DNA from: Thermoleophilaceae bacterium | GTDB taxonomy: Bacteria > Actinomycetota > Thermoleophilia > Solirubrobacterales > Thermoleophilaceae | Assembly: GCA_030447905.1 (NCBI GenBank) | Contig: JAUJNZ010000003.1 | Location: forward strand, 126,479 to 190,478 | Direction of reading: 5' to 3' | DNA length: 64,000 nucleotides | Shown: positions 12,171-32,194 of the stretch, in pieces | Numbering within the stretch: position 1 is the stretch's first letter | Layout of the letters: each line of letters begins with the position of its first letter | Translations under genes and position numbers: made by a program | Notes under the pieces: model-generated | Told to the model about the DNA's origin: nothing | Seen by the model: the letters and a program-made list of their open reading frames with translations, nothing else | The model's database searches: none

Positions 12171-12234
12171 CCGGTCTCGAAAACCGTTATGGGCCAGATC
12201 GGTCCCTCGAGGGTTCGAATCCCTCCCAGCTCCG
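12171..12234 (+). pseudogene. 3' half of a tRNA-Ser (CGA), attachment-site scar
   Basis: Reads as anticodon arm CCGGTCTCGAAAACCG (loop CTCGAAA, anticodon CGA), a long variable arm, the T arm (GAGGG, TTCGAAT, CCCTC) and an acceptor 3' strand ending AGCTCC. The required 5' half is absent upstream, so it is not a complete tRNA. Retention of only the part from the anticodon arm to the 3' end is what site-specific integration into a tRNA gene leaves behind. Confidence 0.65.
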
Positions 12235-12269
12235 CTGAGGGTTTGACCGACGGTGCCTCCGTGGAAGGA

Positions 12270-12431
12270 ATGCGACGGATGCGTTCCAAGGTCGTCTGCC
12301 TCGTCCTACTCGTCCTCTTCTTGGGCGCGGGGAGTGCGTGCGCTGGCGAAGGAGAAGAACAGCAGCTACCCACGTCCCCTGTGGAGGGGTGGTCAGGAGC
12401 AGGAGCAGGGGCAGGAAGGCGGCGAGGCTGA
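12270..12431 (+). pseudogene. Small lipoprotein-like gene, copy 1, frameshifted
   Basis: ATG at 12270 or 12279 opens a signal peptide with a hydrophobic core (VVCLVLLVLFLGAGS) and a cysteine in SACAGEGEE, followed by QQLPTSPV. Compared with the other copy (26289-26423), two bases are missing after CCTGTGGAGG, so the frame leaves the Gly/Glu/Gln-rich tail (GGQEQEQGQEGGEAEQDGG) and stops at 12429. The part from 12325 onwards lies in the 284-bp inverted repeat. Function unknown. Confidence 0.5.
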
Positions 12432-12608
12432 GCAGGACGGCGGTGGCGGGGATTAGGAAGACCGCGCGCTAGCGGGCGTACGGACACGTCGACCCGCCGA
12501 CGCCGTCAAGCCGGGGGGGCCCGCGATGAGAACGGCGGGTCCCCTGGCTCGTCCTGGTCGCCGCGACCGGCACCGTCGCAACGAAAAGTCACCGGTCTCC
12601 AAAACCGG
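12325..12608 (+). repeat. 284-bp inverted repeat, left copy
   Basis: Nearly identical to the reverse complement of 26138-26423, with differences limited to small indels in short runs. It begins within the lipoprotein gene and ends exactly with the anticodon-arm core CCGGTCTCCAAAACCGG. Beyond the core the two copies diverge completely. Confidence 0.85.
12592..12608 (+). other. Anticodon-arm core copy B (tRNA-Trp-like)
   Basis: CCGGTCTCCAAAACCGG, preceded by ACGAAAAGTCA. It has no tRNA T arm or acceptor on its right side. It shares its left flank, but not its right flank, with copy D at 26138-26154. Candidate attachment-site junction. Confidence 0.6.
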
Positions 12609-12727
12609 CACCAGCCCGCCGTCTTGAGCCCGCGCCACGCGACCGAGCTCGGACGAGGCCGCTATCGGCATCCCGTCGCGTCCCGTAGCCTCAGAGCCTT
12701 CCGCAGCCGAGTGAGGAGGAGGAGACG

Positions 12728-26107: not shown

Positions 26108-26154
26108 CGGGGCACCCAGGACTCGAACCTGGAATCGCCGGTTTTGGAGACCGG
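26108..26154 (-). pseudogene. 3' half of a tRNA-Trp (CCA) with anticodon-arm core copy D
   Basis: On the minus strand: anticodon arm CCGGTCTCCAAAACCGG (anticodon CCA), variable CGATT, T arm CCAGG / TTCGAGT / CCTGG, acceptor GTGCCCC and discriminator G, followed by CTG. No GGGGCAC 5' half is found upstream; instead the sequence enters the 284-bp inverted repeat. It is therefore the 3' part of a tRNA gene left at an integration junction. Confidence 0.7.
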
Positions 26155-26423
26155 TGACTTTTCGTTGCGACGGTGCCGGTCGCGGCGACCAGGACGAGCC
26201 AGGGGACCCGCCGTTCTCATCGCGGGCCCCCCGGCTTGACGGCGTCGGCGGGTCGACGTGTCCGTACGCCCGCTAGCGCGCGGTCTTCCTAATCCCCGCC
26301 ACCGCCGTCCTGCTCAGCCTCGCCGCCTTCCTGCCCCTGCTCCTGCTCCTGACCACCCTCCTCCACAGGGGACGTGGGTAGCTGCTGTTCTTCTCCTTCG
26401 CCAGCGCACGCACTCCCGCGCCG
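26138..26423 (-). repeat. 284-bp inverted repeat, right copy
   Basis: Reverse complement of 12325-12608 with a few small indels. Its inner end is the anticodon-arm core; its outer end (about 26423) is joined to a haem peroxidase fragment. Confidence 0.85.
26289..26423 (-). pseudogene. Small lipoprotein-like gene, copy 2, lacking its N-terminus
   Basis: The frame keeps ACAGEGEEQQLPTSPVEEGG and the Glu/Gln/Gly-rich tail to its stop at 26289. This copy has the intact tail but has lost the signal peptide: upstream it is fused in frame to a haem peroxidase fragment. Copy 1 at 12270 has the signal peptide but a frameshifted tail. Together they imply an ancestral lipoprotein of about 60 residues. 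Confidence 0.5.
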
Positions 26424-27254: not shown

Positions 27255-27318
27255 ACCGGTTTTGGAGACCGGTGCCTTTTCGACTCGCGACCCGTGAGTC
27301 ACTCGCACGTCCTCGCCT
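27255..27318 (-). repeat. 64-bp direct repeat, copy 1, with anticodon-arm core E
   Basis: Identical to 27895-27958. On the minus strand it reads as a GCGAGTCGAAAAGGCA-type flank followed by CCGGTCTCCAAAACCGG (core at 27256-27272). No tRNA 3' half adjoins. The spacing between the two copies is 640 bases. Confidence 0.8.
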
Positions 27319-27455
27319 TCGGCGTCGAGTTTATGCCACCCCCAAGCGACATCGCGTTTGTGTTCCTGATGCAGATCGGCGTAATCCTCGGGTTTTTGAC
27401 CGGCTACCCCATGGTCGCCTGGCTGCTATCGCGGGGCACGAAGGCGACCGTCTGA
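27318..27455 (+). pseudogene. DUF4396-like membrane protein, C-terminal fragment
   Basis: FGVEFMPPPSDIAFVFLMQI then GVILGFLTGYPMVAWLLSRG, ending KATV. The 'MQIAMIxGFxTAYPVNWWLIRKG' ending is characteristic of DUF4396 proteins. Only the last membrane helix remains, starting exactly where the 64-bp repeat ends. Confidence 0.5.
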
Positions 27456-28022
27456 CAAAGCCGGCGCGCGCCTTTGAGCTGCTTGTGAGAGCGGTCGAGG
27501 TTGGGTGGGGAGCCAGCTCGTATATCGATAGCTTGCGGCCGTGCGGGTTTCCAGGCGGCCGCCATCACACGGTCGCGGTCGCCACCCCGATGCCCCCGTT
27601 CGCCGTCCGCGGCGATGAGGATGGTCGCCTGCGCGCGCGCGAAGGAGCTCCCGCGAAAGTCACGGACCTCGTGGCGCGCATGACCCCCAGCCCCGCTGGC
27701 GCGTTCCGTCTGAGTGAGGCTCCACGGTGTAGGTGCCGGCGAAGTCGGGGTCGTCGAGGGTGATCATCCTCACGTGATGAAGTGTGACATCTGTATTGAC
27801 CCCGCCGCAGCGGCGCGCGCGGCCGTCCGCCCCCGCGCAACCCTGAGATCGTGTCGGTCCGTCGGTGTCGAGGAGCTGACGAGGACACTCGGGTACCGGT
27901 TTTGGAGACCGGTGCCTTTTCGACTCGCGACCCGTGAGTCACTCGCACGTCCTCGCCTGCCTTGATGGAGCTCGATGTGCCGTGCACTTACCAGCGGCCG
28001 TTCGGGGTGCGACGATGCATCC
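27456..28022. other. Remnant region with repeat only
   Basis: Apart from the second 64-bp repeat, I see only a possible scrap on the minus strand near 27750 (MITLDDPDFAGTYTVEPH) with no family I can name. Confidence 0.3.
27895..27958 (-). repeat. 64-bp direct repeat, copy 2, with anticodon-arm core F
   Basis: Same sequence as 27255-27318; the core CCGGTCTCCAAAACCGG lies on the minus strand at 27896-27912. The flank on the far side of the core differs between the two copies. Confidence 0.8.
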
Positions 28023-28658
28023 ATGACCGAGAACACCAGCGGCGCGCAGGCAGAGTCGATGACGGCCGCGCGCGAGGCCGGTAGGCACCCTCGACCGGCT
28101 GCGTCCCATGTTCTCGATTTGTTCGTAGCGGCCACCGCCTACCACGTCGATCCAAGCCAGGCGGAGGCCCTGCATCGTCAGCGCGAGCGCTACGGTGGGG
28201 GCTATTCGGAGCGAGACCTCGTCGGGCGCCTTCTGACCGCCGCGGCGATGGCGCTGCGCCGGGCAGTCGATCAGGCGTCGCCACCCGCGCCGATCGCCAG
28301 CGGCACAGAGGCCTTCGCGGAGCTCCAGGCGGTACGCGCAGCAGCACGGTCGCGGCTAGCTTTACGCCAAAGCGGTCTCCGCGGGCTTCGCCTCGAGCGA
28401 GCGCGCAAGCGCGGCGAGCTCGAGCTCGTTGAGGCGCTCGAACTAGCTAGCGACCGACTCGGTCCTCTCCCGGCAGGGGGTCTCGGACAGGTGAGAGCGC
28501 CGGACGCCGCCCCGCCTCTGGTTGAGGGCGTCTACCCCACGCCCGACGAGCTTGCCGGCATGGCCGCGCACGCGGGAGCCGCGTTGGGTCGACTTGCTGC
28601 CGCAAGCAGCGATGTAGACCCGGTGGGCGAGCTGCGCGAGGCACTCGAAGGCCCGTAG
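28023..28658 (+). CDS. Unrecognised helical protein
   Basis: 211 residues from ATG 28023 (MTENTSGAQAESMTAAREAG). Mostly Ala/Arg/Leu-rich helices, with a central ELQAVRAAARSRLALRQSGL segment and no motif, signal peptide or membrane helix that I recognise. The frame is open from 27975, but the later ATG gives the more coherent start. Codon pattern supports coding, but confidence is moderate in this fragment-rich area. Confidence 0.4.
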   Translation: MTENTSGAQAESMTAAREAGRHPRPAASHVLDLFVAATAYHVDPSQAEALHRQRERYGGGYSERDLVGRLLTAAAMALRRAVDQASPPAPIASGTEAFAELQAVRAAARSRLALRQSGLRGLRLERARKRGELELVEALELASDRLGPLPAGGLGQVRAPDAAPPLVEGVYPTPDELAGMAAHAGAALGRLAAASSDVDPVGELREALEGP

Positions 28659-28856: not shown

Positions 28857-29690
28857 TTGTTTGAGCGCTTCACAGAGGGGGCCCGCGAGGTGGTGGTCTT
28901 GGCCCAGGAAGAGGCGCAGGGCCTCAAGCACGGACACATCGGTACCGAGCACCTCCTGCTCGCCCTGCTGCGTGAACAGAGGGACCTCGGCGCGCGCATA
29001 CTGAAGTCGCTCGATGTCACAGAAGAGCGCACGCGAGCGCAGGTGGGGAGGATCGTCCCGTCCGGCGGCGATGTGACCTCAGAGCATGTCCCTCTCACCG
29101 AGCGCGCCAAGCGGGCGCTCGCCCTGGCGATGCGTGAGGCCCGGCAGTGGGGTCAAAAGTACATCGCCACCGAGCACATCCTGCTTGGATTGGCACGCGA
29201 GAAGGAGGGTGTCGCGGCCCGTGTCCTGCTCGACTTCGGCGCGGACGCGGAGAAGGTTCGCAGGGAGTTTATGCGCGTGCTGTCCGAGCTTGGCGGCCGC
29301 GACGACCAGCGGCGGGCCCAGGGCAGTATGAGCGGTGCGGGGGCTAAGGAGCGGAAGTCCCCTGGCAGCCCAGAGCGGCAGCGCTTGGAAGCGCTTCAAC
29401 GTGCCAACGAGATACGCCAGGGACGGGCCCGACTAAAACGCGCCATGAAGAGCGGAGGGGTTGACCCGGCAAAGCTCTTTCTCGATCCCCCTGCGTTGAT
29501 CCAAACCGCGAAGGTGGTCGACCTCCTGCTCGGCGCTCCCGGATGGGGCCGAGTTCGCTCCAACAGGGCACTCGAGTACCTCCGGATCTCGCCGACGAGA
29601 ACGGTGGGCACCCTCAGCGAGCGTCAGCGGCTTGTGCTGGCGGAACTGCTGGGCCACCGACCCGAAGGGCAAGCGGCGAACGAGCCGTAG
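28857..29690 (+). CDS. Clp N-domain fused to an actinobacterial IHF-like domain
   Basis: 277 residues from a TTG start. Residues 1-72 and 79-143 are two Clp N-terminal repeats as in ClpC/ClpA (FTEGAREVVVLAQEEAQGLK, IGTEHLLLALLREQ; then LTERAKRALALAMREARQWG, IATEHILLGLAREKEGVAAR). After a Ser/Gly/Lys linker, residues about 172-270 match the actinobacterial integration host factor: RLEALQRANEIRQGRARLKR, the MKSGGVDPAKLF turn, TAKVVDLLLGAPGWGRVRSN, the RTVGTLSERQR loop. No AAA+ ATPase modules are present, so it is not a chaperone. It would be a DNA-binding protein with a substrate- or adaptor-binding N-domain. It is intact among broken neighbours. Confidence 0.8.
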   Translation: MFERFTEGAREVVVLAQEEAQGLKHGHIGTEHLLLALLREQRDLGARILKSLDVTEERTRAQVGRIVPSGGDVTSEHVPLTERAKRALALAMREARQWGQKYIATEHILLGLAREKEGVAARVLLDFGADAEKVRREFMRVLSELGGRDDQRRAQGSMSGAGAKERKSPGSPERQRLEALQRANEIRQGRARLKRAMKSGGVDPAKLFLDPPALIQTAKVVDLLLGAPGWGRVRSNRALEYLRISPTRTVGTLSERQRLVLAELLGHRPEGQAANEP

Positions 29691-30611
29691 TCCATCCGCG
29701 TCCCCAGGACGCAAGTGAGAGGGCGCGGTGCCGCTCGTCGCGGAGGGTGTCGCACAGACCGTTAGACGAGCTCATCGGCCGGATCTCGCGCCGCTCTGCG
29801 GCCCAGGCCGTACGACTCGCGATCCTTGAGCAGCCCCGCCTGCGCCGAAGGTCGCAGTGAGCCCGCGGCCTCGGCAGTCGAGCAGGGCGCCGACGCGCTG
29901 CGCGCGGAGGAGCAACAGCTCGGGCCGGCCGAGGCCGTCGAGGCTGGGGTGCTCGTCGATCGCCTCCTGTCCTACCGCGCGACGAAGTCGTGGGAGGACA
30001 TGGTCCGCGTCGTGGAGACCCGGGGAGCTCGCCGCGCTACTTCGGTCAGGAGCCGGAAGCTAGCTCCGCAGTTTTCGCAGAGAAGGGACCCGCCTTAAGC
30101 GCCCGCTCGAGGGTAAGAGCGCATCGCCGCGACGGCCATCCGGTTCCTCCGAACCGCAATAGGTGGGGATCCGCAGAACTGGGAGTACCAGCTGGCGCCT
30201 TGTCCTGGCCAGGCGCGCCGCGGGCGAGCCACATCGGCAAGCCGTCGAGGAAGCCCGCATACGAAACCCCAAGAGTCGCGTGGTCAGGCTGGAACCACGC
30301 GTCGACCAGGTCGCCTACCGAGCCGGTAACCATGCGCGCGAGCTCCTCGCGGTCGCGGTGACCGAGGCGGGCGGCGCGCGCAAACGGCCTGCACCATCGT
30401 GATGAGATCACCCGCCTCGAGTGAGCTCGCACGCGGGGGCGACCGCAACAAAAGCGGCCGGAGGAAGCGGACCAGCCGCTGCACGAGCGCCTGGAACTCG
30501 GGAACCGTGCGGCGCGCGCAGCCATCGCAGTAGACGCGCGCACGACGCCTGGGACGCGTTTACGCTCGACACCTGAGGGAACTCGCTCTCCGATCCCAAG
30601 AGAGGAAAGCG
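29691..30611. other. Decayed stretch with an unplaced minus-strand coding remnant
   Basis: On the minus strand, 30385-30543 gives VYCDGCARRTVPEFQALVQR and LVRFLRPLLLRSPP, and after a frame change near 30385, 30230-30370 gives REELARMVTGSVGDLVDAWF. The two seem parts of one gene but I cannot name the family. The plus strand shows nothing coherent. Confidence 0.3.
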
Positions 30612-30863
30612 ATGGAGGCGAGCATGAGTCCCGAAGGCGACGTTACACGGCAGGAGTTCGAAGAGCTGAAGCAGACCCAAGCGGTTCAAGCCGCCACCCA
30701 GGCGGGGGCACAGGCGACACAGGCAGCCACGCAGGCCGGTCAGGCAGCCACGGAGGCGGCAGGGCTCGCAGGGATGGGAGCCGCCGTTGGGGCCGGTGCG
30801 GCCGGGCTGATCGTGGGCATCTTTCTAGGGCTCGCGATAGCCAACGCCCAGCACCACCACTAG
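30612..30863 (+). CDS. Small Ala/Thr/Gln-rich single-pass membrane protein
   Basis: 83 residues from ATG 30612 (or ATG 30624), after AGAGGAAAG. An acidic N-terminus is followed by a repetitive Ala-Thr-Gln stretch (QAATQAGAQATQAATQAGQA), one Gly-rich membrane helix (GAGAAGLIVGIFLGLAIANA) and a terminal QHHH. The Gly-x-x-x-Gly spacing in the helix suggests self-association. I know no family for it. Confidence 0.5.
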   Translation: MEASMSPEGDVTRQEFEELKQTQAVQAATQAGAQATQAATQAGQAATEAAGLAGMGAAVGAGAAGLIVGIFLGLAIANAQHHH

Positions 30864-30895
30864 CTACGGCGCCGATCCGAAGAAGGGAGCCGACG

Positions 30896-31620: not shown

Positions 31621-31935
31621 AAGCCCAGGCCTACTCCCCGCGCGCGGGACGGACCCTCCGCAAGACCTTCCCCCTCGCTCGCCGAGGCCCGAGCGTGGCG
31701 CCAAGGATACTCAGGTGGCCATCCGCCGGCGCACCATGCGCGCGCCCCACTCGAGAAGAGCGGCCGCCGTCAACCAGGCCGGCGGCCTGCTTGAACGCCG
31801 GGGCCCGGCGGGCGTCTAGCCGCAGGACCGCGCCCGTGCGATCGGCTTGCGACCGTCAGGAGTGCCCGCATAGGGCGATTTCGCCATCAGGACGGCGAGA
31901 GGGCGGCAGACGGCCACGCGTGGTCAAGTCGGGGA

Positions 31936-31967
31936 AAAGAGCTACTGTGCAGGCACTTCTCTCGACG
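31936..31967 (-). repeat. 32-bp direct repeat, outer copy
   Basis: Identical to 32072-32103. On the selC strand it starts CGTCGAGAGAAGTGCC. The second copy touches the 3' end of selC; this one lies 136 bases further out. Confidence 0.75.
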
Positions 31968-32071
31968 CCTGGACCGACTGCGCCAACGCCCGCACCCACC
32001 GCCCGCTCAGGGCGATTCGGCCGTCAGCTGCGCTGGAGGCCCCGAGACGGCAGGTGCCGCCAGATCGCGGG

Positions 32072-32103
32072 AAAGAGCTACTGTGCAGGCACTTCTCTCG
32101 ACG
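32072..32103 (-). repeat. 32-bp direct repeat, copy abutting selC
   Basis: Starts at the last acceptor base and discriminator of selC and runs downstream of it. The 451 bases from 31621 to 32071 hold no gene that I can support. Confidence 0.75.
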
Positions 32104-32194
32104 GAGCGGCGATGGAATCGAACCATCCAAGCGGAGGGCTGCTCCGCCCTGCCGGTTTTGAAGACCGGATGGGCCACCAGACCCCTGCCGCTCC
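32102..32194 (-). tRNA. selC: tRNA-Sec (UCA), selenocysteine
   Basis: On the minus strand: an 8-bp acceptor stem GGAGCGGC / GCCGCTCC, a long D arm (GGGTC, TGGT, GGCCC), anticodon arm CCGGT / CTTCAAA / ACCGG with anticodon TCA, a long variable arm (GCGGAG / CTCCGC), T arm GATGG / TTCGATT / CCATC and discriminator G. The 8-bp acceptor, long variable arm, UCA anticodon and G73 together are specific for selenocysteine tRNA. CCA is not encoded. It implies that the organism has or had SelA, SelB and SelD elsewhere and translates some UGA codons as selenocysteine. Confidence 0.92.

What the first reader, a model, noticed from the sequence alone, without database searches (positions are those of the whole stretch)
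28857..29690. Clp N-domain fused to an actinobacterial integration-host-factor domain
Two complete Clp_N repeats, which normally bind adaptors, substrates or phospho-arginine on ClpC, are joined to an H2TH-type IHF domain (GAPGWGRVRSN, RTVGTLSERQ) with no AAA+ module. I know of no described protein with this build. It is intact while all neighbours are broken, which hints at selection. Inferred role: a nucleoid or attachment-site DNA-binding protein that is itself regulated or delivered through Clp-type interactions, or one that recruits proteins to DNA. Its place among integration scars makes a role in element excision or silencing conceivable.
Basis: partly seen in the sequence, partly recalled or inferred. 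Interest (0 to 1): 0.77.

Follow-up and report, generated by a model that had tools for sequence, protein, structure and literature searches.

The report
One-off ClpC-receptor / DNA-binding fusion gene
One actinobacterium carries, in a scrambled stretch of mobile DNA next to a tRNA gene, an intact gene that joins the substrate-receptor domain of the ClpC protease to a complete DNA-bending protein; the fusion is real in the sequence but was found in no other genome, so it is a private variant of an already described kind of protein rather than a new system.

Summary
The 277-aa ORF at 28857-29690 has two complete Clp_N repeats (Pfam 8e-32), no AAA+ module nearby, and an actinobacterial IHF domain at residues ~173-263 (NCBIfam 1.2e-14); AlphaFold gives this half an H2TH fold whose top PDB hits are sIHF and mIHF. 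The IHF half keeps its own in-frame ATG (29328) nine residues after ClpC homology ends, so an ATPase-less clpN gene seems to read through into a complete ihf gene. Codon models reject neutrality on both halves' branches (omega 0.08 and 0.13) but cannot date this relative to the fusion. The fusion is private: none in 231 other genomes of the order or in class and phylum samples, no Clp_N beside the 80 nearest IHF genes. It lies in a low-density tRNA-Sec island with short recent duplications, and its TTG start lacks a Shine-Dalgarno. The closest functional model is mycobacterial ClpC2, an ATPase-less Clp_N protein acting as DNA-binding repressor and decoy. Same-family genomes hold other Clp_N/HTH or MerR proteins, and phages carry many ATPase-less Clp_N proteins with varied tails. 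Verdict: real, new variant of a known kind, possibly a relic; modest interest.

The parts
28857..29690 (+). Clp_N-IHF fusion ORF, 277 aa, TTG start
28902..29054 (+). first Clp_N repeat (Pfam PF02861)
   Evidence: C24:155380-155532
29127..29282 (+). second Clp_N repeat (Pfam PF02861)
   Evidence: C24:155605-155760
29328..29330 (+). in-frame ATG (codon 158), probable original start codon of the ihf gene; AGGG 4 nt upstream
   Evidence: alignment of IHF N-termini (inference)
29373..29645 (+). actinobacterial integration host factor (H2TH) domain, residues 173-263
29037..29207 (+). 171-bp piece of the Clp_N half, duplicated at 99.4% (1 mismatch) at C24:116917-117087 in a different setting
28023..28658 (+). 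211-aa ORF upstream, coding-like, no family match
27318..27922 (+). 606-bp repeat, two further 99.7% copies at C24:107455 and C24:114367
30509..30891 (+). 384-bp piece repeated at 99.5% at C24:91470-91853, near another Clp_N ORF
31750..31967 (.). repeat that borders tRNA-Sec 3' fragments at C24:95008 and at the end of contig C13 (probable attachment-site arm)
32102..32194 (-). intact tRNA-Sec; its 3' part recurs at C24:93826 (68 bp), C24:95222 (52 bp) and C13:1-66, marking an island that ends here

Best explanation
The gene is a private fusion on a decaying tRNA-Sec mobile island: an ATPase-less Clp_N gene lost its stop and reads on into a complete actinobacterial-type ihf gene (joint between residues ~148 and 158). 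If made, the protein should work like a DNA-anchored ClpC2: the IHF/H2TH part binds DNA (largely non-specifically, as mIHF/sIHF are thought to), and the Clp_N part offers a ClpC-type docking surface that competes with the host's ClpC for adaptors, clients or toxins, with DNA binding and Clp_N ligand binding possibly coupled. Shown: anatomy, folds, island setting, past purifying selection on both halves, absence elsewhere. Inferred: read-through origin, expression, DNA binding, ClpC competition and any coupling.
For: Domains and folds. The ihf part retains a normal-length N-terminus and its own ATG; ClpC homology ends at ~residue 148. Branch omega 0.075 for Clp_N (2dlnL 29.4 against omega=1) and 0.13 for IHF (2dlnL 20.4). 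H2TH signature GxGxVR and RISPTRT kept with conservative K-to-R changes. Clp_N T6, E31, T81 and E106, the positions that (from memory of B. subtilis ClpC) bind phospho-arginine, are kept. Precedent: ClpC2 binds its own operator, is derepressed by cyclomarin and titrates it away from ClpC1 (PMC10030653). Recurrence of the theme: Clp_N with HTH/Sigma70_r4-like N-termini (weak matches) and a MerR-BFN-Clp_N protein in the same family; 56 of 74 phage Clp_N ORFs lack AAA+ and carry varied tails. The same genome has another ATPase-less Clp_N gene beside a tRNA-Sec fragment (C13).
Against: No ortholog in any genome searched, so the fused state has no comparative support. TTG start without Shine-Dalgarno and no sigma-70-type promoter match (G+C-rich actinobacteria often lack the latter). 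Selection may have acted only before fusion. Domain order and DNA-binding part differ from ClpC2, and the ClpC2 operator motif is absent.
Confidence: 0.45

Rival explanations
1. Non-functional relic: the in-frame joint is an accident of the rearrangements in this island; the gene is unexpressed or about to decay, and both domains merely retain the imprint of selection from before the fusion.
For: Singleton in order-, class- and phylum-wide searches; TTG start without Shine-Dalgarno; low coding density of the island, 45-69% in most 10-kb bins, against mostly 80-99% beyond the tRNA; short near-identical fragments including part of this very gene are scattered in the island; stops are rare at ~69% G+C, so an open frame survives decay for some time.
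Against: 277 codons are still open, no core motif of either domain is visibly damaged, and several neighbouring genes are intact too.
Confidence: 0.4
2. Two proteins from one locus: a full fusion plus a free IHF-like protein started at the internal ATG 29328, the latter being the useful product. (Not exclusive of the other readings.)
For: In-frame ATG with AGGG 4 nt upstream and an N-terminus like those of free IHFs.
Against: Spacing of the putative ribosome site is short; no comparative support.
Confidence: 0.12
3. Assembly artefact: the contig joins two separate genes, or is scrambled by repeats.
For: The genome is a draft in 25 contigs with 98.6-100% identical fragments spread over C24:91-157 kb; C13 ends inside a tRNA-Sec copy.
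Against: The joint (29300-29330) lies outside any repeat found; the frame is kept across it; neither half exists separately elsewhere in the genome at high identity except the 171-bp piece.
Confidence: 0.08
4. Element-specific accessory factor for integration or excision at tRNA-Sec.
For: Position 2.4 kb from the tRNA-Sec attachment site; C13 has a Clp_N gene in a like position, also near an integrase-like ORF.
Against: The C13 gene has no IHF part; the tRNA-Sec regions inspected in relatives hold no Clp_N gene.
Confidence: 0.05

Closest known systems
ClpC2 (Rv2667) of mycobacteria
   Same: ATPase-less protein with a double Clp_N domain related to ClpC; DNA-binding; decoy for ClpC ligands (PMC10030653)
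   Different: ClpC2 has an N-terminal extension and binds DNA through the Clp_N part as a dimer; here the DNA-binding part is a C-terminal IHF/H2TH domain; the Clp_N half is closer to ClpC itself (~67%) than to ClpC2
Actinobacterial integration host factor (mIHF, sIHF; NF041260)
   Same: H2TH fold, basic N-terminal helix, GxGxVR loop; top PDB hits 6bek, 4itq, 6tob
   Different: Fused behind Clp_N; sits outside the clade of the order's free paralogs on a long branch; 54.6 bits against a cut-off of 60
Phage ATPase-less Clp_N proteins (PHROG 35667, unknown function)
   Same: Clp_N at the N-terminus without AAA+, variable C-terminal tail, mobile-element setting
   Different: None of the phage proteins found has an IHF tail
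HTH-Clp_N and MerR-BFN-Clp_N proteins of the same family (L032, L035, L037, L039)
   Same: Clp_N joined to a DNA-binding type domain without AAA+
   Different: DNA-binding domain is N-terminal and of HTH type (the matches of L032 and L037 are below Pfam cut-offs)

Membership tests
ClpC N-domain (Clp_N, PF02861) | two Clp_N repeats above the curated cut-off | tested here: met
   109.6 bits against 20.7, two stretches; AF2 block means of 80-98 pLDDT over residues 1-150
ClpC/ClpA unfoldase | AAA+ modules | tested here: not met
   no AAA+ in the ORF or in window 25-36 kb
actinobacterial IHF (NF041260) | score above the curated cut-off | tested here: not met
   54.6 bits against 60, though E 1.2e-14 over 93 of 102 positions
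actinobacterial IHF (NF041260) | H2TH fold of mIHF/sIHF | tested here: met
   AF2 mean pLDDT 84; Foldseek to 6bek E 4.6e-5, TM 0.65-0.69 by query, 0.78-0.85 by target
actinobacterial IHF (NF041260) | DNA binding and bending | not testable with these tools
   only the GxGxVR loop and basic residues are seen
ClpC2 | ATPase-less double Clp_N protein | tested here: met
ClpC2 | N-terminal extension (~93 aa) before Clp_N | tested here: not met
   Clp_N begins at the first residues and an in-frame stop lies 4 codons upstream
ClpC2 | CGTCAAC-N5-GTTGACG operator just upstream of the gene | tested here: not met
   no match with up to 3 mismatches between 24749 and 35336
ClpC2 | autorepression relieved by ClpC-binding ligand | not testable with these tools
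   needs the protein
PHROG 35667 | profile match | tested here: met
   8.5e-41 over residues 1-145

The most novel reading that the evidence does not exclude
A mobile-element protein that tethers a ClpC receptor domain to DNA, so that ClpC clients, adaptors or phospho-arginine-marked DNA-bound proteins are captured or shielded on the nucleoid; the first Clp_N-IHF protein and one case of a broad, undescribed class of phage and island Clp_N decoys with exchangeable tails.
Probability: 0.15. Interest if true: 0.62.

Novelty: new variant of a known kind. Interest (0 to 1): 0.33.

Why it matters
As a single gene it matters little: one genome, no ortholog. It points to something wider that can be tested: the ClpC receptor domain is repeatedly found detached from its ATPase and attached to DNA-binding or other domains in Solirubrobacterales and on phages, where the family (PHROG 35667) has no assigned function. 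If these are decoys or sensors for ClpC ligands, they extend the ClpC2 principle to phage-host conflict; SPO1 Gp53 already shows that phages manipulate ClpC (PMC6873191).

Tried and rejected
Single-sequence scan of IMG/VR with the whole fusion: nothing. tblastn against phage and plasmid records: Clp_N matches only, no fusion. Mixed Clp_N/IHF alignments for AlphaFold misaligned the two halves, so the IHF half was folded alone and the full length with Clp_N rows only; there the IHF part is low-confidence and says nothing about domain contacts. Recent duplication of the host's own ihf as source of the IHF half: rejected by the trees. Recent copy of the host's own clpC: rejected, 47% third-position difference. 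A phage origin of the IHF half was looked for: 11 viral contigs carry free IHFs, none is its sister and none has Clp_N within the fetched flanks. PMC text searches for Clp_N fusions found no description; that library is partial.

Full report
What is there. The ORF at 28857-29690 is real as a reading frame and as a two-domain protein. The first ~148 residues align with ClpC N-domains (65-67% identity to those of relatives; PDB ClpC1 N-domain about 1e-40) and carry two Pfam Clp_N repeats. Residues 173-263 match the actinobacterial IHF family, and AlphaFold on an alignment of order-level homologs gives a helical H2TH fold whose best PDB matches are sIHF bound to DNA and mIHF. There is no AAA+ coding within several kb.

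How the fusion is built. ClpC similarity stops at about residue 148. Residue 158 is an in-frame ATG (29328) followed by a short S/G/K-rich stretch and then PERQRLEALQRANEIR, the same order as in the free IHFs (M-S-P..., about 20 residues, PERS-QRM-ALQRANEIR). The simplest reading is that a Clp_N gene lost its stop and runs into an ihf gene that still has its own start. This is inference from anatomy; no genome with the two genes side by side was found.

Origin of the halves. The IHF half is not a recent copy of either ihf gene of this genome (C19, 56%; C3, 38%): it branches outside the clade of the order's free paralogs, on a long branch. The Clp_N half differs from the host's clpC at 47% of third and 17-20% of first and second codon positions. 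A two-ratio codon model gives omega 0.075 for the Clp_N branch and 0.13 for the IHF branch, both significantly below 1. This shows long constraint on each domain; it does not show that constraint continued after the fusion. The topology was fixed by hand and synonymous change is near saturation, so the values are rough.

Distribution. With the whole protein, no other genome reaches E 1e-60 in 232 genomes of the order, 399 of the class or 396 of the phylum (ClpC itself gives about 1e-59). Because a distant fusion could hide under that threshold, a junction-centred query (residues 75-277) was run at 1e-31 over class and phylum samples of the same size: again only this genome. Among 41 relatives, whose matches were listed down to about 1e-6, none spans both domains. 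The 80 closest IHF loci in the GTDB contig set, mostly titled Solirubrobacterales, Thermoleophilia or unclassified Actinomycetota, have no Clp_N within the fetched flanks (up to 3 kb). Viral, phage and plasmid collections gave no fusion.

Setting. An intact tRNA-Sec lies at 32102-32194 (-). Near-perfect 3' pieces of it recur at C24:93826 (68 bp), C24:95222 (52 bp) and at the end of contig C13 (66 bp). In the congener G002 the same core genes follow tRNA-Sec on its 5' side at 73-95% identity, while on its 3' side the only match is a 231-bp stretch that in this genome lies at C24:91030-91257, about 67 kb from the tRNA. So some 67 kb has been inserted at the 3' end of tRNA-Sec relative to the congener, and the fusion lies near the tRNA end of that island. 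The island also holds a phage-type integrase (Pfam) and a terminase-like ORF (by eye only; Pfam gave no match). Coding density there is 45-69% in most 10-kb bins, against mostly 80-99% in the core beyond. Several short fragments are repeated at 98.6-100% within C24:91-157 kb, one of them 171 bp of the fusion gene itself. Another ATPase-less Clp_N gene lies about 2.2 kb from the C13 tRNA-Sec piece, and a broken one 0.6 kb from the piece at C24:93826.

How it may work. ClpC2 of mycobacteria is the experimental precedent: an ATPase-less Clp_N protein that binds its own operator, lets go when cyclomarin occupies the Clp_N pocket, and titrates the toxin away from ClpC1 (PMC10030653). Here DNA binding would come from the IHF domain instead, and the ClpC2 operator motif is not found near the gene. 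In the same family Clp_N occurs with HTH-like N-termini and in a MerR-BFN-Clp_N protein. In IMG/VR, 56 of 74 assessable Clp_N ORFs are short and have no AAA+ in the fetched flanks; tails include MazG and many unknowns. This makes a DNA-anchored decoy or sensor the most sensible function if the gene is expressed. Against expression stand a TTG start without Shine-Dalgarno (host clpC has GTG with GAGAGG upstream) and the singleton status. I therefore hold the functional reading (0.45) and the relic reading (0.40) nearly level.

Verdict. Observation confirmed. The claims that no protein of this type is known and that all neighbours are broken should be withdrawn; the exact Clp_N-IHF pairing was not described in the sources searched. 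New variant of a known kind, interest 0.33.

Noticed in passing
L209-L284 (IMG/VR contigs); PHROG 35667: ATPase-less Clp_N proteins are common on phage contigs (56 of 74 ORFs, 49 distinct) with highly varied C-terminal tails, including two MazG fusions (L233, L246) and a CxxC-rich tail (L211, L219); the PHROG has no assigned function. Possibly a family of ClpC decoys or adaptors, more interesting than the fusion itself.
   Followed up: partly
C24:91-157 kb (window 12172-12612, 26138-26422, 27255-27318, 27318-27922, 29037-29207, 30509-30891): Short fragments (64-783 bp) repeated at 98.6-100% identity with unrelated flanks, some inside genes, spread over the tRNA-Sec island; mechanism unknown, assembly error not excluded.
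   Followed up: partly
window 31864-31967 and 32001-32103: Two diverged copies (76%) of a ~104-bp sequence containing AAAGAGCTACTGTGCAGGCACTTCTCTCGACG next to tRNA-Sec, also found at other tRNA-Sec fragments: probable attachment-site arms from stacked insertions.
   Followed up: partly
L033:2564-4441 (G004:C5): 625-aa open frame made of about six Clp_N repeats without AAA+ similarity in the ORF.
   Followed up: no
L039:6194-7612 (G019:C8): MerR HTH, bifunctional-nuclease domain and Clp_N in one 471-aa protein.
   Followed up: no
L286-L296 (IMG/VR contigs): Eleven viral contigs carry free actinobacterial-type IHF genes; L291 has two in tandem.
   Followed up: partly
window 26110-26177 (-): Sub-threshold tRNA match (27.2 bits, cut-off 29): likely a decayed tRNA or attachment-site remnant.
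   Followed up: no
window, whole: Near matches (up to 3 mismatches) to the ClpC2 operator palindrome exceed shuffles (13 against 3.2), but none is near the fusion; probably an effect of the palindromic, G+C-rich pattern.
   Followed up: no
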